From contig OY725505.1 in the NCBI GenBank assembly GCA_963281255.1, positions 2,418,001 to 2,482,000 of the forward strand: 64,000 bases of DNA. Direction: 5' to 3'. The notes under the pieces are model-generated. The model did no database searches. It was not told the origin of the DNA and worked only from the letters and a program-made list of their open reading frames with translations. The first letter of the stretch is position 1. Each line of letters opens with the position of its first letter. Below, piece by piece: positions 15,235 to 51,852 of this stretch. Source of the DNA: Aphrocallistes beatrix. Lineage: Eukaryota > Porifera > Hexactinellida > Sceptrulophora > Aphrocallistidae. A program made the position numbers and the translations under genes.

Positions 15235-16453
15235 TCATGAAAATATTTGTAACCCAAAATTCTTATTGTCAGAAACACAAATAAGTCTCCCTTCTTTAGT
15301 GAAGCTTATTCCCTTGGGATTGATAAACATTCCTTTCTCTTGTCCTTGTTGTCCTAATCGATGAAGGAACTCTCCTTCTGGAGTGAATATCTTGATAGAA
15401 TGATCGTCACAGTCACTAACAACAATGTTAGCATCCAAGTCGATACAGAAGAACAAGGGATTAGTTAGTTGTAGATTCTTTCCTCGAGACAGGATGGAGC
15501 GTATCTTGTCTCCTGTCAGAGTAAACACGTGTAAACAAGGATTGTCTACAAAGCTCAACACATACATTAGTTCCTCTGTTAGCTTAATATCTACAGGACA
15601 TGTCATAGAGTGATGCTTGAATATTATTTTGAATTTGAGTTTGGAATTTAGGACTTGAATTCGATTGTTACATTCATCACAAACATATACATCTCCAACC
15701 TGTGAGATGAACAGCTGACTAGGGGATTCGAACTCTAGATTCCCGGATCCTCTCGTCCCTATTTGTTGTATCAACTTCATGTCAGGTAACATGAAGTGGA
15801 ATACATTATGCTCATTCACATCACTGACATACAGGTTATCATTGTGTATCGCTATGCCCCATGGATTCAAGAATAATTCTTTACCAAATGACTTGATATA
15901 TTCTCCAGTTTGTGAGAATACTGAAACACGGGAATTGTTGAATTCTGCTACGAATATATTTCCACTTTTCTCCTCTACAGTTACTCCTTCAGGACCATTA
16001 AGTTCTCCAGGACCACTACCTTCCTCGGCAACAGTAACAACAGGTTGGAATGCACCATAATTGACGGAAACAAATTCACTGATCTTTCCTATTTCTTCTA
16101 TTGCTTGTTCAACAGAGATGGAATCGATTGAAAATTGGAGTTCTTTCTTTTGTGGGGTCATTTTCAGTTTTTCCAATTCTTTTTTCCATCTCAGTAATCA
16201 TCTTCTGTTGCATTTGTTTGAGAGGATTCTGTTTTATACCTGACTCAACTTGAGATTTCATGGCAGTTATTTCTGAGATCATTTCTTCACGTTGAGTATC
16301 TCTAGCTCGCGACTCTTCTCTCTTCTCACGTAGTTCTGTCAGAATTTCAAATCTTCTTGTGTTCACTTTACCGATTATTCGATCGAAATGTGAGTTGATT
16401 GTCAACTCCAACGGATCAATAGTTTGGGAAGGAGCTGGATAATGTTCTGCCAT
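15235..16453 (-). pseudogene. Coiled-coil/NHL-repeat protein, copy A (single frameshift)
   Basis: The gene starts at 16453 with the family N-terminus MAEHYPAPSQTIDPLEL and a charged coiled coil to about residue 90. A T-run of six on the plus strand at 16180-16185 replaces the five-base CTTTT of the intact paralogs. That +1 change throws the first frame into a stop at 16109. The rest of the protein (LEKLKMTPQKKE onward) continues in the shifted frame to the stop at 15235 and includes a complete NHL beta-propeller (GPGELNGPEGVTVEEKSGN; VGDVYVCDECNNRIQVL). The 5' flank and TATA box are intact. It is either a very recent pseudogene or an assembly or sequencing error in a homopolymer; all other codons look maintained. 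Confidence 0.8.
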
Positions 16454-16525
16454 TTCAACTGTTCTTATTCAAACGATTCAAATCTTATTTGTAAGCTTAG
16501 TGTACAATCACAGAACTCTTCTATT

Positions 16526-16533
16526 TATTTATA
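16526..16533 (-). promoter_or_regulatory. TATA box of NHL copy A
   Basis: TATAAATA on the minus strand, ending 73 bp upstream of the ATG at 16453. It lies in a flank of about 150 bp conserved with the other three close NHL copies, including an AAGCTTAC block and AGAAGAGTTCTGTG just downstream of the box. Confidence 0.7.
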
Positions 16534-16599
16534 GAATTCTATCAAATAGTAGAGTATAGGCAGCACAAGATCTGTACTAATTTCAGAATAGAACTAATT

Positions 16600-18469
16600 A
16601 TATAAATATAAACCACACAATTACGCTAGTGACTACAATACGCGTATTACATGGTATAAATGGAAAATAGTTTTCAGACGGACTAAAATTTTGATACAGA
16701 CAGTTCACTACAATGTTGTTAATTTCACTATTAAGAAGGTCCAGGAGGAGGGATTTGAATCTCTGAAAATTCCCCTCCCTGAACCCTCTTGGATACGGGT
16801 CAGGGGTCAAGTGAATTTAACTGCAGCTGTGTCCGTGTAGTCAACTGTCCGTATCCCCTCTATAAACCTATCTTAATGTTCTAGAAGAGTTCAATAATTA
16901 ATCATAACAAAATATCTGAAAAATAAACATCAGTTCTCTGAAGGTAGAATCCAATTTTTACAAATCTAAATGTACAGTGCAGAAGGAGTGGAGTAGAATA
17001 CAAATTCTACAAATAGAGCAAATGCAAGTTTCAACTTAGATTAGATTGTTATGCGTCTTGTGCTTATTCTGTTTACATATGCAGTAAGGGCATAGCCAAG
17101 AATTTCCAAGGCATGCCGGCTGGCTCACTAAACCTCTGTCAGGCACACCAGACCTGTAGAGTCGTCGTGTGCGGTGCTGCAGGGCCGGGTCGCAATGCAG
17201 TCTCCTATCAAAAGGAGATGTGCCGCTCTAGCCAGAACACTCTGATCTTAATGTTATCAGTGTGTTATTTATCTGTGCAAATATATCATACATTTCAAAT
17301 ATGTCAGATTGAATTGGTCTGATACAAATCGTTTGAAAACAATCTCTAAAATCAGAACTGTCATTCTCTAATGAGGGAAGCCCCAAGACCCCAATTGTCA
17401 CTCACCATCACAAAACATTCTCATCGTACAAACAAGAGACAGATAATGAGAGTTCTTGTATGTAACATGTAATATGAGCGGCGGAATATATTCATTCAAA
17501 GCTTGCTATGCAATTTAAGTTCAAATCTAAACTACATTAATTCAAAGGTTCAAAATAAAATGATTCTTTAAATTGGTTCAGTACATTCCAGAAATTTGTA
17601 AGATTAACAGCGAATAATTCTCAGAAAATTGTCTACAGTTGTGACTCAGAAATATTTGCTACACAATTAAGAACTTCTCTAGACTAATCACAAAACCAAT
17701 ATTCTGTCGTGTGGATATTTTATCAAATAAAGACACAACATCATTTAGAGAAGTTACGGATACTTGTACACGATGTAGACAAAAGTAATGAATAGTTGCA
17801 AATGATACAAATTCCTGATTAGTTCATCAACACGTGAGTACTGAAAGTTGAGCGAAACCTAAGTTATATAGACAATGTGTAATAATGGAAGGGGTACTTT
17901 TTAGCTGTGTTTCGAGCCCATTCTCCTTTCAAACGGATGATTGCATTTGAAAGGATGAATGGCGCTCGAAACAAGGTGTCAGGAGGATTTTGAAGTGAAG
18001 AATTAAAGTAGTCATGTGATATCATGGTATTTTGCACTACTCCGAAATTCCGGGGACGAAATTTCCAGGAGACGAAATTTCCGATTAATAATATTTCATG
18101 GGACGAAACATCCGCCATTATTAACAGAACATGTGTTGCATCTACCTTGTACCTTGTTATAATCGATATCACTCGAAAAATCACAAAATTTGACAATTTT
18201 TCAATTTCAATTCCATAATTCCATGATGAGAGGTCAGAACTTACTTGAGCCATAGCCAAAATACTCCAACTTGCCAAAAATCTACTTTCTGTGCATGGCA
18301 GTTTCTTCAATCAATTCGTTAAATTTGGTGTTTTTTCGTGCGATTTCGATTATAACAGTAGGACAGACTTATTTAGAGATGTTATTTCCCTTATATTTAA
18401 CCACAGGCGCCTCCGGCGGACACAGTGTCCGCCAGCCGCGCGGCGTAAGCAAGCGAAGCGCGATATATA
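16600..18469. other. Gene-free stretch with dispersed-repeat fragments
   Basis: No supportable gene. A short GC-rich tract at 17100-17240 has an open frame of 69 codons with no recognisable similarity. From 18225 to 18463 two fragments of the dispersed GC-head repeat meet in opposite orientation: the GGAGCCATAGCC-type tail block at about 18245-18315, and a reverse-complement head at 18405-18463 with hairpin GGCGGACACAGTGTCCGCC. Confidence 0.55.
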
Positions 18470-20760: not shown

Positions 20761-21495
20761 TCAAATTTCCTTCATCTCATTTTCAAACTCACTCATTGCT
20801 TCTTTTTCCTTTTCAAACTCCGTTTCAACCATATCCAGTTTCTTACTTCTCTCTTCCACCTCGTGCTGGAGCGAAGTTATCTGCCGCGTGATAGTCTCAC
20901 ATTGACCATCGACGTCTAGGTATTCAACGGTAATTTCTTTCAGTTCGTCTCTCAGAATGCATTCATTCTCACTCAGCTTAACTTCGTCTTGTTCCAGATC
21001 CTTGATCTCATCGACAGCTCTTTCTAGTTCCTCCTTAGTCTTGTCTATCTTCTCTTGGATCTTGTCACTCTCATCTTCGCGCTTTTCCACAAGAGCCGCC
21101 AACACGGTCAGCCTGCGCCGGTGGTCTTCTAGGATTATCTCAGCTTTAGAAACACTATCTGCTAACTCTTTGGACTCTTCTTCTAACGAGGTTTTCCTAT
21201 TATCATCTACATCCTGCTCTCCCTCTAACAGGTTAACCTCTTGGTCTTTTTGAGATAATTGATCCAGCATCACATTATTGTCAGAATTTACTTTTGTTTG
21301 TTCTTGCTCAACGGTTTCGAGTCTCTTCTCAACCATCAAGAGTTTGGATTTACTGGAGACTTCTTCTGCTTCCAGGCCGATTATCTGAGCGTCCAACTGT
21401 TTGTTCTTGTCTTCTATCTCTGTCAATACCTCGTTGTTATTATCTAAATCTTCTTTCATTTTGTTCAGACGATTCCTAACCTGCGACGATGCCAT
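20761..21495 (-). CDS. Tropomyosin-like all-coiled-coil protein
   Basis: 244 residues from ATG 21495 (context acaATGG), beginning MASSQVRNRLNKMKEDLD. An in-frame ATG at 21708 would add 71 residues, but those lack coiled-coil character and overlap repeat-like DNA, so the inner start is preferred. Practically the whole protein is charged heptads with no Pro or Gly breaks (examples: LLMVEKRLETVEQEQTKV, KIQEKIDKTKEELERAVDEI). Length and composition resemble short cytoplasmic tropomyosins (about 245-250 residues), which run along actin filaments. The assignment rests on layout only: I see no diagnostic tropomyosin signature, and another actin- or cytoskeleton-binding coiled coil is possible. Single exon; no close neighbours. 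Confidence 0.7.
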   Translation of the reverse strand: MASSQVRNRLNKMKEDLDNNNEVLTEIEDKNKQLDAQIIGLEAEEVSSKSKLLMVEKRLETVEQEQTKVNSDNNVMLDQLSQKDQEVNLLEGEQDVDDNRKTSLEEESKELADSVSKAEIILEDHRRRLTVLAALVEKREDESDKIQEKIDKTKEELERAVDEIKDLEQDEVKLSENECILRDELKEITVEYLDVDGQCETITRQITSLQHEVEERSKKLDMVETEFEKEKEAMSEFENEMKEI

Positions 21496-21688
21496 TGTAA
21501 AAAAGTTTCTAAATAAAGGAGATAAAAATTGTAAAATAAGACCATTAGTTTGGATGACACTGCCAATATCTACAGGTACTGCTTGCCTAGGAGAACTTAG
21601 TTTGGATATGTTTGGACATACACAGTCCAAATCAGACCTGTTATGGTCGCTGACTGTTCGGGCCCGGTCTGTTATGTCAGAGGATAGG

Positions 21689-22156
21689 GATGCATACCTG
21701 GCAACCATCCAGGAATTTGAGTCAATTTAAGTGCCCATCACTCGCTTTTACGCGTAGTGAGGGTGAGAGAAAAACTGATTCAAAAATCAGAGGAATAGTA
21801 CTGAATTTAGTTATTGAAAAAGCCCAGGAATCGATTGGGCCGACCCCAGAGCCTTCGGGCCGGGCGGCCCGAAGGGCCGGCGCTCCCATTTCCGACGCCT
21901 ATGTGGATAAGACACACATGCATGTCAACTTGAGTCAAGATAAAAGTGGGACGCGGCGTTGAATCCCGCGGGACATACTGTGACGCAATATAGAGTATTG
22001 TCGTGCATGTATCCCAAAAATCGGGGCTTAATGGAACAATTTCATGTAAACACGGACTTTTTCCATCGAGTTAATTGCCACACTCGTGAAAATTAGCTCA
22101 ATGGAAAAGTGATAAATCGGGATGTCCCGCCGAAAACGGGACGGTTGGCATGTATG
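21689..22156. mobile_element. Possible degenerate hAT-like element
   Basis: The left end CATACCTGGCAACCATCC (from about 21690) and the right end CGGGACGGTTGGCATGTATG (to about 22156) are imperfect inverted repeats. No clear target duplication was seen. A GC-rich palindrome (CGGGCCGGGCGGCCCG-type) lies at 21855-21885. A related end fragment lies at 3645-3700. Confidence 0.4.
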
Positions 22157-25448: not shown

Positions 25449-26708
25449 TCAAAATATCTGAAGACAATTTATTTCAGCTTCACAGACAACTATAATTCTT
25501 CCTCGTTTGTCTACAGCAACTCCCATCGGCTGTCTAACAGTGTCTATCTTGTGAATCAATTTAAAAAGAGAATCAAAAATAAGAATGCAATCAGAACCAT
25601 AGTCCGAAATGAGAATATTTTTAGAATTGTCAATGAAGAAAAAGATAGGATTAACTACTTGCATTCCATTCCCTCTGGAAACATTACTCTCTAGTGGATT
25701 GAGATCGTACCCGTACATATGGATACAAGGGTTAGACTCGTCTAGAATTAAAATGTAATCTTTTGACAGTTTCACATCAAGAGGGTGTCTAAGTTTATCC
25801 GCACCAAGTTGTGATTTGAACTTAAGTTCCTTAGAAAGTATTTGAATACGATTGTTATCAGAGTCACAAATGTAAACATCTCCTTTCGATTCGTCACATG
25901 CAAGACCACGTGGATAATTAAATTCATTCTTACCCTTACCATATTTCCCAATTTTAGAAATAAACTGGCCATTTAGCTGATAAATTAGAATTTTATGACC
26001 AGATCTTAACCAAAATTTACCATTAGAGACCAGTATTCTTTCTCCGCTAATGACTAAACTACCGGGATATTCCATTCTGCCGTTACCTTCTAGATCTCCA
26101 AACTTGAATAAGATCTTGCCAGAATCATTGAAAACTTTAACGCACTGATTAGATTGATCTGCCACGTAAATGTTTCCTGTTTTCTCATCAATTGCCACTC
26201 CCCGTGGAGAGTTCAGCTCTTCCATCCCATTTCCTTCTTGGCAGACACTCACTACAGGACATACCTTGCTCTTATAGTCAACAGCACTCCTCTCCTCTTC
26301 TACCAGCCTACCCAACTTGCCCAACTCCGCAAGCATAGTATCACTCTCGCACAGGAAATTGACCATTTTAGGTTCTGCTGGAAATGGTATTGATTGAATA
26401 TTTTCAGTAATTTCTGTCATAATTTTATCCTGAAGGTTTTTTGCAAAAGAATTAGTCACATCTGGCAAGAGAGAATTTTGCATTATTTCAAGTTCTCGCT
26501 TCTTTTCATCTTGTTTTTCAAACTCGTTCCGGTACAAGTGATAAGAAGCTAGGATGGCATCCAACTCTTCCAACAGTTCACATTCCCTCGCTCTTATACA
26601 ATCAATCAGTTCTATGAATTTCTGATTGATTTGTCTTCTAACTTCCTTCAATCCTAGCACGAAATTGTCCTCTCCCCGATCTAAGAGAGTCGGATTAGGT
26701 GTAGCCAT
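25449..26708 (-). CDS. Coiled-coil/NHL-repeat protein, divergent copy E
   Basis: Intact single exon of 419 residues from ATG 26708. Residues about 20-140 are charged and helical (RRQINQKFIELIDCIRARE), then a linker, then an NHL propeller from about residue 160: LNSPRGVAIDEKTGNIYVAD, FNYPRGLACDESKGDVYICD, QPMGVAVDKRGRIIVV. Each blade has the N-x-P-x-G-(I/V)-A-x-D pattern of NHL repeats. The layout matches the four close copies (A-D), but the N-terminus and most residues differ, so it is an older branch. No RING or B-box is present, unlike TRIM-NHL ubiquitin ligases; a binding or scaffold role for protein or RNA is the most that can be inferred. The A-D promoter flank is not conserved here. Confidence 0.88.
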   Translation of the reverse strand: MATPNPTLLDRGEDNFVLGLKEVRRQINQKFIELIDCIRARECELLEELDAILASYHLYRNEFEKQDEKKRELEIMQNSLLPDVTNSFAKNLQDKIMTEITENIQSIPFPAEPKMVNFLCESDTMLAELGKLGRLVEEERSAVDYKSKVCPVVSVCQEGNGMEELNSPRGVAIDEKTGNIYVADQSNQCVKVFNDSGKILFKFGDLEGNGRMEYPGSLVISGERILVSNGKFWLRSGHKILIYQLNGQFISKIGKYGKGKNEFNYPRGLACDESKGDVYICDSDNNRIQILSKELKFKSQLGADKLRHPLDVKLSKDYILILDESNPCIHMYGYDLNPLESNVSRGNGMQVVNPIFFFIDNSKNILISDYGSDCILIFDSLFKLIHKIDTVRQPMGVAVDKRGRIIVVCEAEINCLQIF

Positions 26709-27879: not shown

Positions 27880-27924
27880 TACATCTAATCTTTTTCACTT
27901 CCTCACACGTCGCGTTATTGTAAC

Positions 27925-29114: not shown

Positions 29115-30323
29115 TCAGTTAAAATACTCTAATAAAGTTTGAGAATTAAATATGACGAGTGAGGAATTCCGATAATCACAGCCTATAAACTCATCTTCTT
29201 TGTACAAACATATGCTAGTGAGCTGAGAGAACTTCTCACTGCTCTCTACCTTCACACACCTACACCCCTTCCTCTCATACACGTACACGGAAGCTGTGGA
29301 TCTCGGGATAATGATGACATGACTGCTCTCAGTGATGCACAGTCTCGACATCACACCTCCCAGCTCTCCACCTGCTAGAGACCCGAACTTCCTCAAGAGA
29401 TCGTGTGAAGAGCTGAACACGCTCACACAGGGATTATCTCGAGTCAGTACATATATCTCCGTATTCTTGAATAGTCTGATATCAACTGGATGGAATAACT
29501 TCCCTGAAGTGCAATTGTCAGTTCCAATGAATCCAGTGAACTCCGTATTCTTGAACGTCTGAACTCTGTTATTGTTGCAATCGCATACAAAGAGTTGCTC
29601 ATTCGAAACGCACAATCCTTGTGGCAGATCAAACTGACACTTTTCTGAACCAAACATTCCTAAATTGGAAATATGGCTCCATTGCTTGTCATAGATGTCA
29701 ACTGAATGTTCTACCGTGAGACTCACGAACACCTGTGTAGCACTGATGGCCATGCATCCGTATTTCCTCTGACTAGCATCACTCGAAGGCTTCGATATGT
29801 CAGATTTGAGAATGATCTTTCCATTAGAATCTATAACTAATCCAATGTACCCATTAGTAATAGCATACACGTTCCTACTCTCGTCAACACTGAGAATACA
29901 CGGCTTAAGCTTGAGAGGAGTAACAGAGAGAGAGTAAGGTGAGAACACTGGTTTGTAGCTGATTCTGCCCACATCCTGCAATTCACACTCAATACTATGT
30001 TTGTCTAGTGATAAGCTAATCTCCACTCTATCAAGTTCCTTTCTACGATCCTCTACTTGAGATATCTTCTCTTCAATGTCTGATTTTATTTTAGACATCA
30101 CCATAGCAACCTCGTTGTCATAAGGAATGTCGTCTTTTGGTAGATTTTCTTGCAACTGCGTTTTCTGATTTTGAAGCTTTTTTATGTTCAATAAATACTC
30201 GTCTTTAACATTCCTAACTTCTGTCAATAACATCTGTTTTCTGAATAAAAGAACGTTCAATAATCGGTTTATGTCATTATCAATATCAGACTCCACTTGT
30301 TCGCATCTCGCAATTAAGTCCAT
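29115..30323 (-). CDS. Coiled-coil/NHL-type propeller protein, divergent copy F
   Basis: Intact single exon of 402 residues from ATG 30323. The N-terminal 125 residues are a coiled coil (KIKSDIEEKISQVEDRRKEL). From about residue 140 there is a propeller whose blades are weaker than in the other copies; the clearest are FDLPQGLCVSNEQLFVCDC with NNRVQTF, and LFHPVDIRLFKNTEIYVL. The order (coiled coil, propeller, a CVSVFSS-like blade matching CLHVFTL in copies A-D) places it in the same family. No RING or B-box. It is the most diverged member in the window. Function unknown; a partner-binding propeller is inferred. Confidence 0.82.
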   Translation of the reverse strand: MDLIARCEQVESDIDNDINRLLNVLLFRKQMLLTEVRNVKDEYLLNIKKLQNQKTQLQENLPKDDIPYDNEVAMVMSKIKSDIEEKISQVEDRRKELDRVEISLSLDKHSIECELQDVGRISYKPVFSPYSLSVTPLKLKPCILSVDESRNVYAITNGYIGLVIDSNGKIILKSDISKPSSDASQRKYGCMAISATQVFVSLTVEHSVDIYDKQWSHISNLGMFGSEKCQFDLPQGLCVSNEQLFVCDCNNNRVQTFKNTEFTGFIGTDNCTSGKLFHPVDIRLFKNTEIYVLTRDNPCVSVFSSSHDLLRKFGSLAGGELGGVMSRLCITESSHVIIIPRSTASVYVYERKGCRCVKVESSEKFSQLTSICLYKEDEFIGCDYRNSSLVIFNSQTLLEYFN

Positions 30324-32904: not shown

Positions 32905-34131
32905 CTAGTAAAGGATACATGAAAAAATTTGTAAACCGAAATTCATATTTTTAGATACACAAATAAGTCTCCCTTCTTTAGTGAAGCTTATTGCTGTGGG
33001 ATTGATAAACATTCCTTCTTCATGTCCTTGTTGTCCTATTCGATGAAGGAACTCTCCTTCTGGAGTGAATATCTTGATAGAGTGAGCATCACAGTCACTA
33101 ACAACAATGTTAGCATTCATGTCGATACAGAAGAACAAGGGTTTAATTAGTTGTAGACTTTCTCCTCGAGACAGGATGGAACGTATCTTGTCTCCTGTCA
33201 GAGTAAACACGTGTAAACAAGGATTGTCTACACTGCTCAACACATACATTAGTTTCTCTGTTAGTTTAATATCTATAGGACGTGTCATAGAGTCATGTTT
33301 GAAAAACATTTCGAATTTGAGTTTTGAATTTAGGACTTGAATTCGATTGTTAGATTGATCACATACATATACATCTCCAACCTGTGAAATGAACAGCTGA
33401 CGAGGGTCTTTGAACTCTAGATTCCCGGTTCCATATTTCCCTACTTGTTGTATCAACTTCGTGTCAGGTAATTTGAAGTAGAATACTTTATGACTGTTCC
33501 CATCACTGACATACAGGTTATCATTATGTATCGATATGCCCCATGGAGTAATGAATAATTCTTTACCAAATGACTTGATATATTCTCCAGTTTGTGAGAA
33601 TATTGAAACACGGAAATTGTTGATTTCTGCTACGAATATATTTCCACTTCTCTCCTCTACAGCTACTCCAGCAGGACTATCAAGTTCTCCAGGACCACTA
33701 CCTTCCTCGGCAACAGTTACAACAGGTTGGAATTCATCATAATGAATGCGTACAACTTCACTAATATTTCCTATTTCTTCTATTGCTTGTTCAACAGAGT
33801 TAGAATCGATTGAGAATTGGAGTTCTTTCTTTTGTGGAGTCATTTTTAGTTTTTCCAATTCCTTTTCCATTTCATTAATCATCTGCTGCATTTGTTTCAG
33901 AGGATTCTCTTTCAGACCTGACTCAACTTGAGATTTCGTGGCAGATATCTGTGAGATCATTTCTTCACGTTGAGTGTCTCTAGCTCGCGACTCTTCTCTC
34001 TTCTCACGTAGTTCTGTCAGAATTTCAAATCTTCTTTTGTTCACTTTACCGATTATTCGATCGAAATGTGAGTTGATTGTCAACTCCAACGGATCAATAG
34101 TTTGGGAAGGAGCTGGATAATGTTCTGCCAT
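32905..34131 (-). CDS. Coiled-coil/NHL-repeat protein, copy B
   Basis: Intact single exon of 408 residues from ATG 34131. It has the family N-terminus MAEHYPAPSQTIDPLELTIN, then a Glu/Arg/Lys-rich coiled coil (about residues 25-125; FEILTELREKREESRARDTQ). The propeller runs from about 150 to the end with six NHL-like blades, for example LDSPAGVAVEERSGNIFVAE, VGDVYVCDQSNNRIQVL and IVVSDCDAHSIKIFTPEG. NHL propellers bind RNA or protein; without RING or B-box there is no sign of ligase activity. The usual family TGA stop has become TGT, giving a four-residue extension (CILY) absent from the sister copies. The promoter flank is the same as in A, C and D. Confidence 0.92.
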   Translation of the reverse strand: MAEHYPAPSQTIDPLELTINSHFDRIIGKVNKRRFEILTELREKREESRARDTQREEMISQISATKSQVESGLKENPLKQMQQMINEMEKELEKLKMTPQKKELQFSIDSNSVEQAIEEIGNISEVVRIHYDEFQPVVTVAEEGSGPGELDSPAGVAVEERSGNIFVAEINNFRVSIFSQTGEYIKSFGKELFITPWGISIHNDNLYVSDGNSHKVFYFKLPDTKLIQQVGKYGTGNLEFKDPRQLFISQVGDVYVCDQSNNRIQVLNSKLKFEMFFKHDSMTRPIDIKLTEKLMYVLSSVDNPCLHVFTLTGDKIRSILSRGESLQLIKPLFFCIDMNANIVVSDCDAHSIKIFTPEGEFLHRIGQQGHEEGMFINPTAISFTKEGRLICVSKNMNFGLQIFSCILY

Positions 34132-34203: not shown

Positions 34204-34211
34204 TATTTATA
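34204..34211 (-). promoter_or_regulatory. TATA box of NHL copy B
   Basis: TATAAATA on the minus strand, ending 73 bp upstream of ATG 34131, in the 5' flank of about 150 bp shared with copies A, C and D. Confidence 0.7.
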
Positions 34212-39882: not shown

Positions 39883-41100
39883 TCATGAAAATATTTGTAA
39901 ACCGAAATTCGTATTTTTAGATACACAAATAAGTCCCCCTTCATTAGTGAAATTTAATCCTTTAGGTTTGAAAAACATTCCTTTCTCTTCTCCTTCTCGT
40001 CCTAATCGATGAAGGAACTCTCCTTCTGGAGTGAATATCTTGATACAGTGATCATCATAGTCACTAACAACAATGTTCGCATTCATGTCGATACAGAAGA
40101 ACAAGGAGTTAGTTAGTTGCAGATTTTTTCCTCGAGACAGAATGGAGCGTATCTTGTCTCCTGTCAGAGTAAACACGTGTAAACAGGGATTGTCCACATA
40201 GCTCAACACATACATTAGTTCCTCTGTTAGTTTAATATCTATAGGGCGTGCCATTGAGTCATGCTTGAAATTTATTTTGAAATTGAGCTTTGAATTTAGG
40301 ACTTGAATTCGATTGTTATCTTGATCACAGACATATACATCTCCAACCTGTGAGATGAACAGCTGACAAGGGTCTTTGAACTCTAGATTCCCAGATCCTT
40401 TCTTCCCAACTCGTTGTATCAACTTCATGTCAGGTAACTTGAAGTGGAATACTTTATGATTATTCCCATCACTGACATACAGGCTATCATTCCGTATCGC
40501 TATGCCCCATGGATTCATGAATAATTTGGTACCAAATGACTTGATAAATTCTCCAGTTTGTGAGAACGCTGAAACACGGGAATTATAGAATTCTGCTACG
40601 AATATATTTCCACTTCTCTCCTCTACAGCTACTCCAGCAGGACTATTAAGTTCTCCAGGACCACTGCCTTCCTCGGCAACAGTCACAAAAGGTTGGAGTG
40701 CATCATAATGAACGCGTACAACTTCACTAATCTTTCCTATTTCTTCAATTGCTAGTTCAACAGAGTTGGAATCGATTGAGAATTGGAGTTCTTTCTTTTG
40801 TGGAATCATTTTCAGTTTTTCCAATCCCTTTTCCATCTCATTAATCATCTTCTGCTGCATTTGTTTGAGAGGATTCTCTTTCAGACCTGACTCAACTTGA
40901 GATTTCGTGGCAGATATCTGTGAGATCATTTCTTCACGTTGAGTGTCTCTAGCTTGCGACTCTTCTCTCTTCTCACGTAGTTCTGTCAGAATTTCAAATC
41001 TTCTTTTGTTCACTTTACCGATTATTCGATCGAAATGTGAGTTGATTTTCAACTCCAACGGATCAATAGTTTGGGAAGGAGCTGGATAATGTTCTGCCAT
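39883..41100 (-). CDS. Coiled-coil/NHL-repeat protein, copy C
   Basis: Intact single exon of 405 residues from ATG 41100, with N-terminus MAEHYPAPSQTIDPLELKIN. A coiled coil (about residues 25-128) precedes an NHL propeller (from about 150): LNSPAGVAVEERSGNIFVAE, MNPWGIAIRNDSLYVSDGN, VGDVYVCDQDNNRIQVLNS, GMFFKPKGLNFTNEGGLICV. It ends GLQIFS plus TGA like copy A. Substitutions against copy B are scattered, mostly conservative and without frame breaks, as expected if selection maintains it. About 220 bp of 3' flank and 130 bp of 5' flank are also shared with copies B and D, which gives the duplication unit. No RING, B-box, signal peptide or membrane segment; probably cytosolic. Confidence 0.92.
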   Translation of the reverse strand: MAEHYPAPSQTIDPLELKINSHFDRIIGKVNKRRFEILTELREKREESQARDTQREEMISQISATKSQVESGLKENPLKQMQQKMINEMEKGLEKLKMIPQKKELQFSIDSNSVELAIEEIGKISEVVRVHYDALQPFVTVAEEGSGPGELNSPAGVAVEERSGNIFVAEFYNSRVSAFSQTGEFIKSFGTKLFMNPWGIAIRNDSLYVSDGNNHKVFHFKLPDMKLIQRVGKKGSGNLEFKDPCQLFISQVGDVYVCDQDNNRIQVLNSKLNFKINFKHDSMARPIDIKLTEELMYVLSYVDNPCLHVFTLTGDKIRSILSRGKNLQLTNSLFFCIDMNANIVVSDYDDHCIKIFTPEGEFLHRLGREGEEKGMFFKPKGLNFTNEGGLICVSKNTNFGLQIFS

Positions 41101-41172
41101 TTCAACTGTTCTTATTTAAACGATTCAATTCTTATTTGTAAGCTTAGTGTACGATCACAGAACTCTTCTATT

Positions 41173-41180
41173 TATTTATA
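41173..41180 (-). promoter_or_regulatory. TATA box of NHL copy C
   Basis: TATAAATA on the minus strand, ending 73 bp upstream of ATG 41100, with the shared downstream AGAAGAGTTCTGTGATCGTA block. Confidence 0.7.
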
Positions 41181-43037: not shown

Positions 43038-46000
43038 ATGGAAGCTAGTCTGTCTGACATAGCAGCTACTGCCGATCTTGCAGATAAACTGTCTACTCAC
43101 GATGTTAAACAGCTCGTGTCCTACCTTAATCCTCCTTCAGCTCTGTTCCAATACGCCATAGACGGAACTGCATTCCTGAGCTCCCTGAAAAATTGGGAGA
43201 GCAGAGACCCCAATGCCATCTTTCGAGGCATCCATGCCACTCGGCCTGACCTCGTTCCCATTTCTCGGAAGATTGGGTGGCTGTCCATTGCCACTCGAGG
43301 ACCAACCACGCCCATGCAGAAACTCCTGAAAACAGACATCAGCACTGCACAATGGGAGATAATCGGAACCAGCGTTGAAGGCATCAGCAAAGAAACCACG
43401 ATCGATCTGAACATCTCGAAACTAGCGGGAAAGGGATTCATACGCAAAGAATCTGGCTAAGCTAATGGAGGCAGTCAAGCGGAACGATATCGCCGAACAG
43501 CTACGAAAACTCGAACCGTCATTCAGAGAAATGAGCGATGAAGAATTCAGCGAGAATTTCAAGAAAGAGCTCCCCTCAGACGATAAGGAACTCCAGACTT
43601 GGGACTCGAGACTGAGGAAGTTCCTCGTGACTCAGCACAAGAAAGTGGAGCAGCACTTGAACGACGAAGAGGAAGTCTCGATCGAGTCAGTCTACGTCCC
43701 GCTAACCATCATAAAGCAGAAACCTCGTCCAGTCGATCCACAGGACGAAACGACATACAGCGAGATTGCCTTCCAACGCAAGATCGCCAACAAAGAAATC
43801 GACGTAACTCCAGTCGATTTCACCGAAGAGATTTCCGAATACGATCCATCCCAATCCGAGACATGGTGTCTGATCGAGAATCCGGTGAGTGGAAAGAGTT
43901 TTCTCTGTCAGAGGACTTCGCTCCGATTCGGAAGGGGAGAGTTGTCCAAGTTTTCATTTCCATTTCCGTTCCCTGCAGAAGTGCGGACTGGCACCAGATG
44001 GAACGGGGCAGGGAAGGGAAGTCCGTGGACGGAGACTTCATCCAAGACTGGCTGTGTCTGTCCATGCCAGTCGGGCCGAGTTGGCCGAAGGAACTCGCAA
44101 GGCACCTCTTCGAATCCGCCGGAGAGGGCCTGCTGCTGATCATTGACAGCATGGACGAATACATCAAAGAGGTTCCTTTCCAACAAACCCTCCTGCACCT
44201 GTAAGACCCTCTCCCAGTCCACCATCGTCCTCACCAGCCGTCCAGGGGCCTACACCTCCATCTCCTCCGCCCATGTCCTGCGGATAGACAGGTTCTACCA
44301 GGTGCTGGAGTTCTCTCCGGAGAACAGAGACCTCTACTTCAGAATCCAGCTACCCAAGGAGGCAAAGCTAGCGCAGCTCCACAGGATCTTCTACCTTCAC
44401 GAGGAAGTGAGCCACTTATCCCTGGTGCCCGTGAACGCCTCTCTCTTCGCCGCCCTGATCCGCGGTAGCGATGAGCTGAGCGCGCAAACCCTGACTCGCC
44501 TCTACTCCCACCTCACCGCCTACCTGATCCGGCGGCAGCTGTCGCGCATGGGACTGACGGAGATGGCGGAGAAGAAGGAGCTGAGTCTCCTGGACGCGTC
44601 CGTGCTGGAGTGCCTGCACCACATCGGCGAGCTGGCGTACTTGGGCGTTTATGGCAGAGACCTGCTCTGATCTCCTCCAAGGACATCCTCCTCAAGCTGG
44701 ACAGAGAGGAGAGATCCTGCCAGTGCTTGGGTCTTCAAGAGGGATCAGCTGGGGGGCATTACTCGTGTGTGGTCTTTTTCTCACCTCACCATTCAGGAGT
44801 TCGTGAGTACCGTCTGGCTGAGGAAGGAATCGTGGAGAGACCAGTGTCTGAGTTGTCGCTATATCGCCAATTCCGCGGACAACTTTTCTATTTTCAAGAT
44901 GGTCATCCGCTTCTTGTGTGGTCTGTTGGCAGAGAACGCGAGTCACATCCTCACCATCCTCTACAAGCACCACTCGACACCTCCTGTGTCTATGCAGGAT
45001 ATGCCGATGCATTACCAACTCAACTACCCTGGTACAAATATGCTTGGCCTAATGGGATGGACGAATTTCACTGAGAAATTCGTGTTGTCCGAATTGTTGT
45101 TTGAAACCAGCTGTGACTCTATCTCAAAATCATTTCCTGATTTCGATAAATTCCTTCCTCAGTCACCTTGTTTCTATCTCGAAAGTGCCACGCCTCCCAA
45201 TGAGTGGGAGTGCTTCCTCAAATCTCTACCACTCCTCCACTCTATACAGCTGATATACTTCGATACACGACACGTCCCACTAACTCAGTTCAGAGCACTG
45301 CTAGCTAGCCTGACTTCCTGTTCTCTCAGGTACTTAGCTGTGAAGATGTATCATCAACACTATTCTACTCTATCTGAGTACAGTAATGCCATCCGAGAGT
45401 GTCAGCTGCCATCAGACACTAAGATTAGTTTGGAACTTAACTCATGTAACCTCACCACCAATGTATCACCTACTTCTATTTTCACGCCTTTCTCAAGCTT
45501 ATGTATATTTTGGACCATATTCACAACTCAGAGCCGTCAATATTTAGCCAATCAGCTGATTTCTACTGACAACCTTTACTTTTATCCCCGTGACACCAGT
45601 CACTACAAGACCTTACTTCCATGTCTCAATTCTTCACAGCTGACAGGTTTACACATCTACCGTATTCCTACTGACTGTATAGAGCTGCTAGAAACTCTCC
45701 TACCCCAACAATCCAACCTACACATACAGATACAGATATCTACTCACTGCTACCTTATATCAGTAAACTCAGGTTACTCTATTTGCGTCTAGAAAGTGTT
45801 CCACTCTCAGAATCAGGAATGTCATGTCTGTGCAGAGGACTGCTGTGTCATCCTACCTTGAGAAGTTTAGACGTATGGCATTGTGAACTGAATTCCAACT
45901 CTTGTGTCTATCTCACTCAACTCATCTCAACATTCAAACATTTCAAGAAACTCATCATGTCTAATAATAACCTCTCTGAACCTGATCCTGAACCTGTCAA

Positions 46001-47052: not shown

Positions 47053-47180
47053 GGTAAACAAAAGCAAACAAATAATTTATCATATAGTAGATCTGAAAAT
47101 ATAATATTCGAAATCTACACCCCTAGAAACCCCATGTCACCCGTTGGAAGCTAGTCTCTAGCATATTTTTCAAAATTCAT

Positions 47181-50100
47181 CAATGGTGTGAATATATCTA
47201 ATCAATTATTCATTTCCAAGTTTTCAAATTCTCAAGAAGTGCCACTTTGTGCTACATTGTACATTTTACCACTCGTATGCTGATGGTGATGAACTCTAGT
47301 GGCCATAGACGCCGAACTTTTCGAAATCTAAGGAAAATTTCAGGGTTCCAGGGGGGGCTCAGCCCTAAATTTTGTATTGCGTCTATGGGCCATCTTCGAA
47401 TCCAGGGGGGATCGAGCCCCCCCAGCCCCCCCGGGTTCGGTGCCTATGCTAGTGGCGAAGGTTGATAATTTTATCCATTGAGGTCAGGCCTCTCAACTCT
47501 CACGATCTCGTCGTGTGCTACACGATTTCGGGGAAATGTCACGATCTCACGACAGACCCCCAAATCTCACGATTTGTCTCAAAATATCACGACGCTTCTA
47601 TTAAACCTCACGATTTGCGAACTCTCTCAGGTTGAGAGCCCTGGGAGATTAGCAATTTCTTAGAATGCTTCAATTATGACTAATTTGAATGCGTAGACTC
47701 CGAATCTGAAATCAGACTCTTTGTATTTCTAAGAGTTTGATTGAATTTTCCTTCATGAAGAGAACTAACTTACTACTATTTATATGGGAAATAATGTGTT
47801 CTAATACTTTTGTCCGATTAGTGTATATATATTAGAGGTATTAAAAAGTCCAGATAATATATTCCAATAATATAAATAACATGTACTCCCGACGCCTATG
47901 TTCCTGCGGACCACGCCTCATGGTTTAAGAGCTAGCGAGATCTATCCAACTAACGTACCCGTCCAGCTCAGTTCAGATCGAGCATAGACCACCACATCGG
48001 GAGATTTCTTAATTTCATGATATTTGATTATTTTGAATATGAAAACACAGTTGAGTATTCATGCTGATCACTAGTATGATTTCTAGATATAGATCTTATA
48101 TATTAAAAATCAATGGGTTTTGTTTGTTTGTTTGTTTGTGCAAAGTTGATTGAGAAACTAGGTGATGTTAGGAATTGAAATTTGGCACACAGGTAAATAA
48201 TAATGAATCTACGTATAAGAGAATTCAAGGTCTAAGCGAAATCTTCACACCTCGCCGAAGTAGGTGACAAATTGTGCTGACCAATGAAATTCGATTATTT
48301 TATAATACAAATACATTGAGATCTAAACAGGGACTTACATTTACAACGCATACAATTGAAGAGACTATTTGTGATTGAAATCATTGGTTTAAGCTAGAAC
48401 CAATCAATTATCAGACTTTCATAATTCGATTTATACGATTCTATTTCAGATATAAATGATTGAATACAGCTATTTTGAGTCTAAAAAAAAACACTCCAGT
48501 TTGCATCCACCATTATCATCATCATATTCATATGATTGATCGAGCTTAATACATAATACTTTGGGAAAGAATATTTCAATAATTAAATTAAATATCTCAC
48601 AATCTCCAATCTCACACTTGCATTAAGAACGGGTGTTAATTTCAGAACAATGGAAAAATATTCATATTACATAATGTAAAATGAATAATTAATTGTAAAA
48701 CCAAGATTGTGGAAAAAATGGTATGTCACAGGGTTCTATCAATTCAACATCCTATTAGGAGGGAAGCTCCCCCCCAATAGGATGTTGAATTGGGGGAGGG
48801 AGCTTCCCCACCCTGGTAAACAAAACTGCACCTGTAGGAGGTAAAATTTCCTCATGCACCTTATGTGACCAAAATTTGATAGGGTTACCTTCATGAATGC
48901 TGCATTTAACATCTTATCTGGACCTCCCATGATTTGTCATTTGGGGTCGGATCGAATATCATATAATAAGGGAGAATGTAACTGAAGTGAGCGTCCCCCT
49001 CAAGAGGGGCGCCCTTCCTAGGAAAAAAGGTGGGGAGGGGGGCTGCGCTAACCTGCGGCCCCTTCCAAAGCACCACTGGGCATAACTAGGTACAAATCGA
49101 ACAATTGGAGATGTTTCTATACTCAATATTACAATAATGTATCATTAATATCAAATTTAATCAAAACTGAATCCTCATTTTTTGGGAAGAGAATTCTTTT
49201 AATCAGACTTTTCCCAGTCAGGGGGGGCTGAACCCCACTTAGCTTCTGGTAAATCAATTTACATGACATAGTGTGAAATCAATAATTAAAGATTGTAAAA
49301 ATATTACCATCATTGGAAAATCTGCAACTGCTGAAGGTGTTTAAATTGTCTTATGTATCTTATGCGCCCAGAAAATGATAGGGTTGCATTTATGGCTTTT
49401 GAGTTCTAGCTAGTTGAATTTGTAAAGGTGTATCAGGCTTACTACTGCTACGTATTACTTATGTCCAAATTCATTATTCCCGTACTTTCGGTATTCCCAG
49501 AAAAACCCATTATGGAGAAACTATCAAGCAGTCGCCATCCAGGTATCCTACAAATGCGCCGGGATAGCAAGTGTAGCGAAATGGGACTCTTGCATGAAAT
49601 TTCTTAGAGCTAGTCAATTCAACACTTTACATATTTAAATCATTTAATATTTTCTACAAGAACTTCATTGTTGTTTAATTAAATCCGTTAGTAATGTCAA
49701 TGTATTGAATATCTCATTACATAAACTGGAACTTTTTTTTTTTCCATCCGAAATTATCAACTTACATACAATATTATTCTCAACTCTAACGATCTCGTGT
49801 ACCTCACGATTTAGTTTAATGAAAGGTTGAGATGCCTGAGATCGAGTGAGATACAATGTCGATGATGTTATGTACAAAAGATGTCCCAAACGATATATAA
49901 TTAGGAGCTAATTGTTATTTAAAAAGTATTTTCGATAAAATATTCTAATTTTAACTAGTACACCCAAACATTTGAGTACACAGTGGGGTAGAATCTGACC
50001 CCACATGGTCAACCTGCGTACTTGCCTAAGTGATCGAAAGTAGAATTTAATCACCAAGCCGTCCAAGCGTTTAATGGACATGACAATTAATTCAAAGACC

Positions 50101-50566
50101 GAACTTTACAACCGGAATAAATTAACGGCAGGAAGACAGAGTATGCGGAGACCATTCCACTCTTACTGGTAGGAGACCTCATACAGTGACAGAACTAACC
50201 TTCTATGCACTGCCCAAGCGAATGAAAACCACTTGTATTAATTAAAAATTAGGAAGTAATTGTTTCATTTGTCTGTCAATTTAGGCTATTTTGAATTCAG
50301 TTTGCTTACAATATTCACTAACATAAACTGATAAATATTTAGAAGTTGCAGATATCCAAAATGCACATCTAAAACACAAATGAAGAACATTGTGAGAAAA
50401 CTTTTCTCCAATATTTCGTCGTAAGACACATTTTTTACACAAATAATAAGAATAAACAAAAACAAAAACAGAAGGTTGATAGTTTAAAAGCGGAGCTCTA
50501 AAATAATAGTCTAACATAAAAAGAATCTCAACAATAGAAGAGTGGTGTCCATAGAATAAGAATTCA
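47181..50566. other. Gene-free stretch with MITE relics and hairpins
   Basis: Contents: a G/C-run-rich fragment at 47295-47460; a possible hAT MITE at 47482-47642 (ends CAGGCCTCTCAA and TTGAGAGCCCTG); an inverse relative of the 36578 repeat at 48105-48490; and a double hairpin at 48741-48812. 3' flank DNA of NHL copy D lies at 50330-50566. No gene seen. Confidence 0.55.
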
Positions 50567-51772
50567 TTAAAATATTTGTAAACCGAAATTCTTATTATCA
50601 GAAACACAAATAAGTCTCCCTTCTTTAGTGAAGCTTATTCCTTTGGGATTGATAAACATTCCTTTCTCATGTCCTTGTTGTCCTATTCGATGAAGGAACT
50701 CTCCTTCTGGAGTGAATATCTTGATACAGTGATCATCATAGTCACTAACAACAATGTTAGCATTCATGTCGTTACAGAAGAACAAGGGTCTAGTTAATTG
50801 CAGATTTTCTCCTCGAGACAGGATGGAGCGTATCTTGTCTCCTGTCAAAGTAAACACGTGTAAACAGGGATTATCTACACAGCTCAACACATACATTAGT
50901 TCCTCTGTTAGCTTAATATCTGCAGGACGTGTCATAGAGTCATGCTTGAGGATTATTTTGAAATTGAGTTTTGAACTTAGGACTTGAATTCGATTGTTAG
51001 ATTGATCACAGACATATACATCTCCAACCTGTGAGATGAACAGCTGACAGGGATATATGAACTCAAGATTCCCGGTTCCTTTCTTCCCTACTTGTTGTAT
51101 CAACTTCATGTCAGGTAATTTGAAGTAGAATACTTTATGCTTATTCGCATCACTGACATACAGGTTATCATTCTGTATCGCTATGCCACATGGAGTAATG
51201 AATAATTCGGTACCAAATGACCAGATATATTCTCCAGTTTGTGAGAATATTGAAACACGGGAATTATTGGCTTCTGCTACGAATATATTTCCACTTCTCT
51301 CCTCTACAGCTACTCCAGTAGGACTATCAAGTTCTCCAGGACCACTACCTTTCTTAGCAACAGTTACAACAGGTTGGAATGCATCACAATTAATGCGTGC
51401 AACTTCACTAATCTTTCCTATTTCTTCTATTGCTTGTTCAACAGAGTTAGAATCGATTGAGAATTGGAGTTCTTTCTTTTGTGGAGTCATTTTCAGTTTT
51501 TCCAATTTCTTTTCTATCTTAATAAACATCATTTGTTTGAGAGGATTTTGTTTTATATTTGACTCAACTTGAGATTTCGTGGCAGATATCTGTGAGATCA
51601 TTTCTTCACGTTGAGTGTCTCTAGCTCGCGACTCTTCTCTCTTCTCACGTAGTTCTGTCAGAATTTCAAATCTTCTTGCGTTCACTTTACCGATTATTCG
51701 ATCGAAATGTGAGTTGATTGTCAACTCCAACGGATCAATAGTTTGGGAAGGAGCTGGATAATGTTCTGCCAT
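50567..51772 (-). CDS. Coiled-coil/NHL-repeat protein, copy D
   Basis: Intact single exon of 401 residues from ATG 51772, with the family N-terminus MAEHYPAPSQTIDPLELTIN. The coiled coil (about residues 25-120) is shortened by four residues near KQMMFIKIEKKLEKL. The NHL propeller follows: LDSPTGVAVEERSGNIFVAE, VGDVYVCDQSNNRIQVLSS, IVVSDYDDHCIKIFTPEG, GMFINPKGISFTKEGRLICV. It stops one codon earlier than A and C (GLQIF plus TAA). It shares the 5' flank and TATA spacing and about 250 bp of 3' flank with the other close copies. No RING or B-box. Confidence 0.92.
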   Translation of the reverse strand: MAEHYPAPSQTIDPLELTINSHFDRIIGKVNARRFEILTELREKREESRARDTQREEMISQISATKSQVESNIKQNPLKQMMFIKIEKKLEKLKMTPQKKELQFSIDSNSVEQAIEEIGKISEVARINCDAFQPVVTVAKKGSGPGELDSPTGVAVEERSGNIFVAEANNSRVSIFSQTGEYIWSFGTELFITPCGIAIQNDNLYVSDANKHKVFYFKLPDMKLIQQVGKKGTGNLEFIYPCQLFISQVGDVYVCDQSNNRIQVLSSKLNFKIILKHDSMTRPADIKLTEELMYVLSCVDNPCLHVFTLTGDKIRSILSRGENLQLTRPLFFCNDMNANIVVSDYDDHCIKIFTPEGEFLHRIGQQGHEKGMFINPKGISFTKEGRLICVSDNKNFGLQIF

Positions 51773-51844
51773 TTCAACTGTTCTTATTCAAACGATTCAA
51801 TTCTTATTTGTAAGTTTAGTGTGCGAACACAGAACTCTTCTATT

Positions 51845-51852
51845 TATTTATA
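51845..51852 (-). promoter_or_regulatory. TATA box of NHL copy D
   Basis: TATAAATA on the minus strand, ending 73 bp upstream of ATG 51772, in the shared promoter flank. Confidence 0.7.

What the first reader, a model, noticed from the sequence alone, without database searches (positions are those of the whole stretch)
15235..51852. Dispersed family of coiled-coil/NHL genes with an invariant promoter
Four close copies (16453, 34131, 41100, 51772 as start codons; all minus strand) share their coding layout, about 150 bp of 5' flank and some 3' flank. In every copy TATAAATA ends exactly 73 bp upstream of the ATG. NHL propellers normally follow RING and B-box domains in TRIM proteins; here the protein starts directly with a coiled coil. 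This looks like an expanded, coordinately expressed, lineage-specific family of unknown function.
Basis: partly seen in the sequence, partly recalled or inferred. Interest (0 to 1): 0.72.

Follow-up and report, generated by a model that had tools for sequence, protein, structure and literature searches.

The report
Sponge propeller genes with hypervariable binding face
A sponge-like animal genome carries hundreds of intron-free genes for a ring-shaped binding protein that lacks the usual ubiquitin-ligase head, and evolution has repeatedly changed the amino acids around its binding pocket, as expected for a large inherited set of recognition molecules.

Summary
The four copies and shared TATA box are real (last base of TATAAATA at -73 in 4 of 4), but are the small end of something larger. 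One copy (16453) is frame-broken; three are intact single-exon genes. The 29-bp promoter core occurs 11 times in the 100.5-Mb genome, always before this subfamily. Four searches give 375 distinct NHL loci, a lower bound, against 24 B-box hits. The proteins align end to end with a RING-like/B-box/coiled-coil/NHL protein of the same genome: headless TRIM-NHL proteins. Main result: in 5 of 5 sampled subfamilies (27 sequences) amino-acid change concentrates at four positions per propeller blade, where 10 of 10 LIN41/TRIM71 RNA contacts named in PMC5908797 sit. Face pN over propeller pS is 1.9-4.8, elsewhere 0.41-0.62; site models favour positive selection in all five. In the AlphaFold model 18 of 19 selected propeller sites lie on the DA/BC side. 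Best reading: an inherited, diversified repertoire of recognition proteins, probably for non-self. Function is inferred; no expression or population data. The organism is probably a glass sponge.

The parts
50567..51772 (-). Intact single-exon headless TRIM-NHL gene, 401 aa (reference member; codon numbers in this report refer to it)
   Evidence: ORF; Pfam NHL 6e-20, no RING/B-box; AlphaFold helix plus six-bladed propeller
39883..41100 (-). Intact single-exon member, 405 aa
   Evidence: 84% identical to the reference
32905..34131 (-). Intact single-exon member, 408 aa
   Evidence: 87% identical to the reference
15235..16453 (-). Frame-broken member: 114 codons from the ATG, then the frame shifts; the remaining ORF 15235-16161 starts at an internal ATG
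   Evidence: (2 TGA, 1 TAA)
51845..51852 (-). TATAAATA, last base at -73
41173..41180 (-). TATAAATA, last base at -73
34204..34211 (-). TATAAATA, last base at -73
16526..16533 (-). TATAAATA, last base at -73 of the broken copy
51593..51902 (-). Low-divergence 5' block of the reference copy (-130 to codon 60); the other promoter-bearing copies have it too
   Evidence: p 0.029 (-85..-1) and 0.046 (-130..-85) over 11 copies, 0.030 at four-fold sites of codons 0-60 versus 0.113 for codons 120-409 over 8 intact copies, 0.436 for -250..-130
50570..51370 (-). Six-bladed NHL propeller (codons 135-401) with hypervariable positions next to the blade proline (P-1, P+1) and after the VAD/VSD/VCD motif (D+1, D+2)
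25449..26708 (-). CC-NHL gene of another subfamily (419 aa), about 60% identical to a cluster centred on contig C8; no TATAAATA within 200 bp upstream
29115..30323 (-). Diverged lone CC-NHL gene (402 aa), best relative 31% identical

Best explanation
These genes are members of a very large family of headless TRIM-NHL proteins: single-exon genes for a coiled coil followed by a six-bladed NHL propeller, derived from (or sharing an ancestor with) B-box/coiled-coil/NHL proteins with a RING-like finger in the same genome. The coiled coil is kept nearly constant within a subfamily, while the ligand face of the propeller is diversified by positive selection at four positions per blade. I infer that they are cytosolic recognition proteins that pair through the coiled coil and present two variable propeller faces, forming an inherited repertoire for recognising rapidly changing targets (microbial or viral molecules, or other individuals' molecules). 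The effector step is probably supplied by other proteins, for example the few RING-bearing TRIM-NHL proteins with related coils. The subfamily-specific TATA promoters are part of the copied cassette. Shown by computation: architecture, a lower bound of family size, selection and its location. Inferred: pairing, ligand type, immune or allorecognition role, and mode of signalling.
For: Architecture and descent: Pfam; colinear profile alignment of profile columns 10-406 to residues 221-624 of L072, a B-box/NHL protein with a RING-like match, E 2.7e-21. Size: 375 distinct NHL loci versus 24 B-box hits. Intactness: 95 of 103 and 94 of 101 match rows without stops; 8 of 11 promoter-bearing loci have full ORFs. 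Selection: M1a-M2a LRT 72.9 for the window's subfamily (9 sequences), and 13.1 (C9), 19.8 (C13), 93.3 (C14), 63.4 (C12); 40.8 and 16.8 for the two propeller halves of the first with their own trees. Sites with posterior above 0.7 in the 24 ligand-face positions: 12 of 20 (window's subfamily), 2 of 4 (C9), 8 of 11 (C13), 17 of 34 (C14), 11 of 15 (C12). pN_face over propeller pS 1.89, 2.34, 2.49, 4.79, 2.57 versus 0.41-0.62 for the rest. Single-step codon pairs 1.58 versus 0.39 pooled. Offset profile peaks at P-1 (28 of 30 columns variable), P+1 (25 of 30), D+2 (22 of 28), D+1 (22 of 29). External definition of the face: 10 of 10 LIN41/TRIM71 RNA-contact residues named in PMC5908797 (passage read) fall at these offsets. 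Model: 8 of 19 selected propeller sites in DA loops, 3 in the second residue of strand A, 7 in BC loops, 1 in a D strand, 0 among 49 AB/CD loop positions. Composition of the face over 32 members: Trp 33-fold, Tyr 3.6-fold, Arg 2.5-fold enriched; within the five subfamilies 27 of 27 face strings differ.
Against: No expression, binding, population or knock-out data. RING-type paralogs used as control also vary more on this face (pN_face/pS 0.91 versus 0.36), though not above 1 and at higher divergence. Against the pS of the face codons themselves, not of the whole propeller, the ratio is lower: about 1.2, 1.8, 1.05, 3.9 and 1.5 (from the values), because pS is also raised there in 5 of 5 subfamilies; multi-step counting, conversion or a raised local mutation rate may contribute. 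In C13 the single-step ratio at the face is 0.91; those of C9 and C14 rest on only 2 and 3 silent pairs. C9 gives few sites (2 of 4 on the face). Recombination among paralogs can inflate site-model tests: Sawyer-type test P 0.001 for all sites, 0.11 for silent sites. The 27 sequences are top search hits, not a random sample; the C8 subfamily was not tested. I saw the selected sites of the window's subfamily before matching them to LIN41, so only the other four are an independent test. The site models are my own implementation. Face location rests on secondary-structure class; coordinates were not measured. An immune role rests on analogy.
Confidence: 0.65

Rival explanations
1. RNA regulators: the proteins are TRIM71/Brat-like RNA-binding repressors that diversified to silence many different transcripts or transposon and viral RNAs.
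For: NHL domains are closest by sequence to TRIM71, TRIM2/3 and Thin among solved structures; the variable positions coincide with the LIN41 RNA contacts.
Against: The face is not consistently basic: net charge of the 24 positions ranges from -4 to +6 over 32 members and is 0 in 11 of 32, whereas 8 of 10 named LIN41 contacts are Arg or Lys. Trp/Tyr/Asn/Ser enrichment looks more like protein or glycan binding (inference).
Confidence: 0.15
2. Allorecognition rather than anti-microbial immunity: the diversified faces bind polymorphic self molecules to control fusion of individuals or tissues.
For: The closest mechanistic parallel, fungal HNWD propellers with four selected positions per repeat, works in allorecognition (PMC4986451 and PMC12222747, passages read).
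Against: Hundreds of loci on 20 contigs is more than known allorecognition systems use (recalled); no fused effector domain in the seven members scanned with Pfam.
Confidence: 0.2
3. Passive duplication: gene-sized cassettes were copied by a mobile-element or segmental process and drift with relaxed constraint.
For: Homology ends within a few hundred bases of the gene in several pairs, with unrelated flanks beyond; 3 of 11 promoter-bearing copies are frame-broken.
Against: Most listed copies keep open frames; rest-of-propeller pN/pS 0.41-0.62 and face values above 1 are not drift.
Confidence: 0.05
4. The invariant 5' flank is a promoter held constant by selection for co-expression.
For: Proximal 130 bp p 0.03-0.05 against 0.11 at four-fold sites of codons 120-409; TATA position fixed in 11 of 11 promoter-bearing loci.
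Against: Four-fold sites in the first 60 codons are as low (0.030); one C14 member (L043) shares only about the last 50 bp upstream with its relatives; the flank is confined to one subfamily.
Confidence: 0.3
5. The propeller diversifies partly by a mutational or conversion mechanism (segment exchange or raised local mutation), not by selection alone.
For: In C13 and C14 divergence is 0.00-0.03 from about -150 to codon 130 and 0.02-0.04 in the 147 bp after the stop, but 0.07-0.11 over the propeller; pS of the face codons is higher than the rest in 5 of 5 subfamilies.
Against: Silent sites alone give no significant run test in the window's subfamily (P 0.11); Nei-Gojobori counting inflates pS where codons differ at several bases; recent homogenisation of the ends gives the same profile; in the window's subfamily the 3' UTR diverges more, not less, than the propeller.
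Confidence: 0.3

Closest known systems
TRIM-NHL proteins (TRIM2, TRIM3, TRIM32, TRIM71/LIN-41, Brat, Mei-P26, Thin)
   Same: Coiled coil followed by a six-bladed NHL propeller; best solved-structure matches are TRIM71, TRIM3, TRIM2 and Thin NHL domains; colinear with a B-box/NHL paralog of the same genome.
   Different: No RING and no B-box in the seven members scanned; hundreds of single-exon copies instead of a handful; ligand face under positive selection, whereas most LIN41 RNA-contact residues are identical between species (PMC5908797, passages read).
Fish finTRIM, btr and trim35/hltr multigene families (PMC3137616, passages read)
   Same: TRIM-derived multigene families in which the C-terminal recognition domain evolves under positive selection at ligand-binding loops.
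   Different: Those use a B30.2 domain on an RBCC protein; here the NHL propeller is the variable domain and the head is missing.
Fungal HNWD/NWD NOD-like receptors of Podospora (PMC4986451, PMC12222747, passages read)
   Same: Beta-propeller sensor with diversifying selection at four positions of each repeat mapping to the interaction surface; intracellular recognition.
   Different: WD40 not NHL; NACHT NTPase and HET effector domains; near-identical tandem repeats with variable repeat number. Here there are six diverged blades, no NTPase or effector found, and many loci.
Single-exon tandem expansions of glass sponges such as the AIG1-domain cluster of Aphrocallistes vastus (PMC10282587, passages read)
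   Same: Compact genome rich in single-exon genes and tandem clusters.
   Different: Different domain; the main text of that paper does not contain the word NHL.

Membership tests
TRIM-NHL (class VII TRIM, RBCC-NHL) | N-terminal RING finger | tested here: not met
   No RING match at E 0.01 in the six window CC-NHL proteins and L036, while RING-like matches appear in the B-box relatives, above Pfam's cut-off only in L075
TRIM-NHL (class VII TRIM, RBCC-NHL) | One or two B-boxes | tested here: not met
   No B-box in the same seven proteins; genome-wide only 24 B-box matches from 48 candidates, all scored
TRIM-NHL (class VII TRIM, RBCC-NHL) | Coiled coil before the C-terminal domain | tested here: met
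   Predicted helices 14-73 and 77-93, pLDDT 48-68; coil region aligned to the coil of L072. Oligomerisation itself not tested
TRIM-NHL (class VII TRIM, RBCC-NHL) | Six-bladed NHL propeller | tested here: met
   Pfam NHL 6e-20 for the reference; six blades in the model; phmmer to TRIM71 2.2e-32
TRIM-NHL (class VII TRIM, RBCC-NHL) | E3 ubiquitin ligase activity | not testable with these tools
   No RING, so intrinsic activity is not expected (inference)
Diversified immune or allorecognition receptor repertoire | Many paralogs with lineage-specific expansion | tested here: inconclusive
   Many paralogs: met (375 loci or more). Lineage specificity not tested: the genome search holds prokaryotes besides G000
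Diversified immune or allorecognition receptor repertoire | Positive selection at the ligand-binding surface | tested here: met
   with the caveats on C13, C9 and raised pS
Diversified immune or allorecognition receptor repertoire | Variation between individuals; induction by microbes or contact; binding of non-self | not testable with these tools
   No population, expression or binding data
Glass sponge (Hexactinellida) as source organism | Mitochondrial code with TGA=Trp, AGA=Ser, ATA=Ile, AAA=Lys (hexactinellid AGA=Ser is recalled, Haen et al. 2007) | tested here: inconclusive
   cox1 on C28 read at sites that I recall as conserved fits this code; no reference sequence was aligned
Transposable element or processed retrogene | Copies lacking the promoter, with target-site duplication or poly-A tail | tested here: inconclusive
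   Copies include the TATA region, and some pairs share segments more than 1 kb upstream, which argues against retroposition of mRNA; target-site duplications and poly-A tails were not searched

The most novel reading that the evidence does not exclude
A glass sponge, from one of the early branches of animals, has an inherited repertoire of several hundred to about a thousand cytosolic receptors built from a headless TRIM scaffold. Each carries a constant, homogenised 5' half (promoter and coiled coil) and a variable propeller whose binding face is diversified at four positions per blade. It would be an animal counterpart of the fungal propeller receptors and of antibody-like variable surfaces, possibly helped by segment exchange between paralogs.
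Probability: 0.5. Interest if true: 0.9.

Novelty: new variant of a known kind. Interest (0 to 1): 0.8.

Why it matters
If true, early-branching animals possess a large recognition repertoire of a kind not found in the searches made here: an NHL propeller, not LRR, SRCR, Ig or B30.2, used as a variable binding surface. It would give a concrete, testable answer to how such animals tell many targets apart. It would show that diversifying selection on four positions per propeller blade arose independently in fungi and animals. It would also provide hundreds of natural variants of one binding scaffold, with the specificity positions already marked by evolution.

Tried and rejected
The rough Chao-type figure of about 940 mixes overlapping and non-overlapping queries and is only indicative. 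The union may include NHL loci that are not headless (7 of 24 B-box hits lie within 2.5 kb of a listed NHL locus), and it missed at least one NHL gene (L076), so it is neither pure nor complete.

Orphan promoter copies: none among the 11 sites found with up to 3 mismatches; all precede subfamily members. A TATA box common to all CC-NHL genes: rejected. Of 45 upstream regions examined (25 loci, after leaving out L030, L034, L035, L045 and L050; 20), only 1 of the 17 C12 and C8-type members has a TATAWA ending 60-80 bp before the ATG.

Passive repeat or pseudogene family: rejected on open frames and selection. Simple relaxation of exposed loops: disfavoured because face pN exceeds propeller pS in 5 of 5 subfamilies, although C13 does not exceed 1 in the single-step count. 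RING-type paralogs as a clean negative control: only partly clean (0.91 versus 0.36).

Fold search of the model against PDB was not obtained; sequence matches to solved NHL domains were used instead.

Papers: listings only. Passages only, no whole text, for PMC8242945, PMC3503706, PMC10282587, PMC5908797, PMC9634614, PMC2533329, PMC3137616, PMC4986451, PMC12222747, PMC4346834, PMC4520895, PMC4558845. That no paper reporting this family was found rests on those searches of an open-licence library, of which I saw only the top rows; the Oopsacas genome paper did not appear in the listing and was not read.
Full report
WHAT IS THERE. The window lies at C19:2418001-2482000 of a 100.5-Mb, 28-contig genome. 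The four ATGs and the TATA box at -73 are as described. Copies 34131, 41100 and 51772 are intact single-exon genes of 401-408 codons; copy 16453 is frame-broken. Two more single-exon coiled-coil/NHL genes, 25449-26708 and 29115-30323, lie between them and belong to other branches.

ORGANISM. The mitochondrial cox1 on contig C28 reads TGA as Trp; AGA falls at positions that I recall as Ser in other animals, ATA at Ile positions and AAA at the conserved Lys. From recall this combination fits glass sponges and not echinoderms; no reference sequence was aligned. A compact genome rich in single-exon genes and tandem clusters matches what is reported for the glass sponges Aphrocallistes vastus (80 Mb) and Oopsacas minuta (61 Mb) (PMC10282587, passages read). 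I treat 'probably a glass sponge' as an inference.

THE PROMOTER. A 29-base core has 11 copies in the genome with up to 3 mismatches, 0 for the reversed control, all in front of this subfamily; 8 of the 11 genes are intact and 3 are broken. Among these 11 copies divergence is 0.029 for -85..-1, 0.046 for -130..-85 and 0.436 for -250..-130. Four-fold sites of codons 0-60 differ at 0.030 (18 of 597 comparisons) against 0.113 (300 of 2664) for codons 120-409 (8 intact copies). The low divergence therefore covers promoter and 5' coding sequence alike. The nearest relative (C7) has TATACATA in place of TATAAATA. Other subfamilies have other upstream sequences, some with their own TATA-like box about 60-75 bp before the ATG. 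In C13 and C14 (three members each) the last 150 bp upstream and the coil are nearly identical (0.00-0.03) while the propeller differs at 0.07-0.11; the fourth C14 member, L043, shares only about the last 50 bp upstream.

FAMILY SIZE. Four searches of the genome with three window proteins and the Pfam NHL model listed 458 matches that merge into 375 distinct loci. First-look candidates number 1,299 to 3,391 per search, of which 100 to 150 were scored, so 375 is a lower bound; it is also not pure, since some listed loci belong to B-box genes. B-box matches number 24, with all 48 candidates scored. Match rows without in-frame stops are 95 of 103 and 94 of 101.

DESCENT. Five B-box loci were fetched and three single-frame proteins and one split gene scanned. 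L072 and L076 have a B-box, an NHL propeller and a RING-like match below Pfam's cut-off; L073 has a B-box and RING-like matches but no NHL match; L075 is split into a RING frame (above cut-off) and a B-box/NHL frame; L074 has an open NHL part only. A profile of the five window proteins aligns over nearly its whole length, coil included, with residues 221-624 of L072 (probability 99.4, E 2.7e-21). The CC-NHL proteins are therefore best described as headless TRIM-NHL proteins. They fail the RING and B-box criteria, so I do not file them as TRIM proteins; they look TRIM-derived.

SELECTION. For 9 intact members of the window's subfamily (8 with this promoter plus the C7 relative) pairwise dN/dS is 0.31-0.77. 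Adding a positively selected class to a two-class model gives a likelihood-ratio statistic of 72.9, with 6.9% of sites at omega about 5. Twenty sites have posterior above 0.7. Aligned by blade, they recur next to the proline of xPxG and just after the VAD/VSD/VCD motif. PMC5908797 (passages read) names ten LIN41/TRIM71 residues that contact RNA; 10 of 10 sit at P-1, P+1, D+1 or D+2 of the blades when counted on the TRIM71 chain. Defining the ligand face as those four offsets in six blades gives 24 positions; 12 of the 20 sites fall there, hypergeometric P 9e-12.

INDEPENDENT SUBFAMILIES. For C9 (4 sequences), C13 (3), C14 (4) and C12 (7, about 300 codons each, without the propeller's last part or the N-terminus) I asked whether the same positions are special. 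Face pN over propeller pS is 2.34, 2.49, 4.79 and 2.57 (1.89 for the window's subfamily); the rest of the propeller is 0.41-0.62 in all five. Divided by the pS of the face codons themselves, the values give about 1.2 (window's subfamily), 1.8 (C9), 1.05 (C13), 3.9 (C14) and 1.5 (C12). Variable columns, face against rest: window's subfamily 22 of 24 against 114 of 242, C9 18 of 24 against 66 of 243, C13 16 of 23 against 46 of 240, C14 21 of 24 against 40 of 243, C12 20 of 22 against 74 of 225. Site models: 13.1, 19.8, 93.3 and 63.4, with 2 of 4, 8 of 11, 17 of 34 and 11 of 15 high-posterior sites on the face; without the C7 sequence the window's subfamily still gives 47.8 (11 of 21 sites on the face), and its two propeller halves with separate trees 40.8 and 16.8. 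Counting only codon pairs that differ at one base, the normalised N/S is 1.58 on the face and 0.39 elsewhere pooled; by subfamily the face gives 1.25, 4.37, 0.91, 4.64 and 1.89, those of C9 and C14 resting on 2 and 3 silent pairs. Across up to 30 blade-subfamily combinations P-1 varies in 28 of 30, P+1 in 25 of 30, D+1 in 22 of 29, D+2 in 22 of 28; P-2 (20 of 29) and D+4 (17 of 29) are intermediate and the other offsets shown are 0.07-0.41. Five further sequences (L031, L032, L033, L040, L047) were aligned but belong to no multi-member group and were left out of these counts.

STRUCTURE. AlphaFold2 with the five window proteins gives mean pLDDT 77.5 and pTM 0.66; ten-residue blocks of the propeller are mostly 82-98 with three at 63-75, the coil 48-68. 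Residues 14-73 and 77-93 are helical and six blades follow. Of the 19 selected sites in the propeller, 8 are in DA loops, 3 are the second residue of strand A, 7 are in BC loops, 1 is in a D strand, and none is among the 49 AB and CD loop positions. By the usual propeller convention the DA and BC loops form one face; the coordinates were not measured here.

COMPOSITION. Compared with the rest of the propeller the face is enriched in Trp (33-fold, 26 residues), Tyr (3.6), Arg (2.5), Cys (2.2), Asn (1.8) and Ser (1.5), over 32 members. Within the five subfamilies 27 of 27 face strings differ. Net face charge ranges from -4 to +6 and is 0 in 11 of 32. That is unlike the basic LIN41 pocket and favours varied protein or glycan ligands over RNA (inference).

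CONTROL. B-box/NHL paralogs (L072, L084, L085, with or without L074) also vary more on the face, pN/pS 0.93 or 0.91 against 0.36 elsewhere, odds ratio about 3.7. The face is therefore a generally evolvable surface; what distinguishes the headless genes is a face pN above propeller pS in every subfamily sampled, and the numbers.

HOW IT PROBABLY WORKS. Shown: many open single-exon genes, constant coil, variable propeller face, positive selection. Inferred: no signal peptide is apparent by eye, so the protein is probably cytosolic; the coil pairs two chains; the two propellers bind a target with the variable faces; and, having no RING, the protein acts as an adaptor, blocker or partner of RING-type paralogs. 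Non-self recognition is the simplest reason for sustained diversifying selection on a binding face in hundreds of paralogs, as argued for fish TRIM-B30.2 families (PMC3137616) and fungal propeller receptors (PMC4986451, PMC12222747), all read as passages.

WHAT REMAINS OPEN. Why the propeller diverges more than the 5' coding and flanking parts even at synonymous sites in C13 and C14; whether members are expressed; whether the family exists in other sponges; and the true gene number.

Noticed in passing
window 25449-26708 (-): Member of a separate CC-NHL subfamily, about 60% identical to more than 20 genes, mostly in a cluster on contig C8 at 0.19-0.98 Mb; selection on its face was not tested.
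   Followed up: partly
window 29115-30323 (-): CC-NHL gene with no close paralog among the 103 scored candidates (best 31%), unlike its neighbours; possibly a conserved single-copy member.
   Followed up: partly
G000:C19:2794884 and C19:2878304 (loci L045/L035 and L034): Two promoter-bearing copies both lose their frame after codon 198, suggesting a shared ancestral break or conversion between them.
   Followed up: no
L043 (G000:C14:101392): C14 subfamily member that shares only about the last 50 bp upstream with its relatives; the TATA-bearing block further up is replaced by unrelated sequence.
   Followed up: no
G000:C12:4250370-4265086: Five CC-NHL genes at a spacing of 3,380 bp, four of them scoring identically: very recent amplification or an assembly effect.
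   Followed up: no
G000:C24 (58 kb): Small contig carrying three copies of the window's subfamily; may be an unplaced part of C19 or an alternative haplotype.
   Followed up: no
window 20761-21708 (-): Tropomyosin-like coiled-coil ORF, 315 aa, Pfam PF00261 7e-12.
   Followed up: no
window 10799-13225 (-): Single-exon 808-aa TPR plus SET-domain protein, SMYD4-like by recall.
   Followed up: no
window 44001-46000: Stretch with G+C 0.50 against 0.37-0.42 in the neighbouring 2-kb steps; its ORF 44899-45792 (+) has no Pfam match.
   Followed up: no
window 6279-6737 (+): ORF that resembles a mariner-type transposase fragment by eye; not searched.
   Followed up: no
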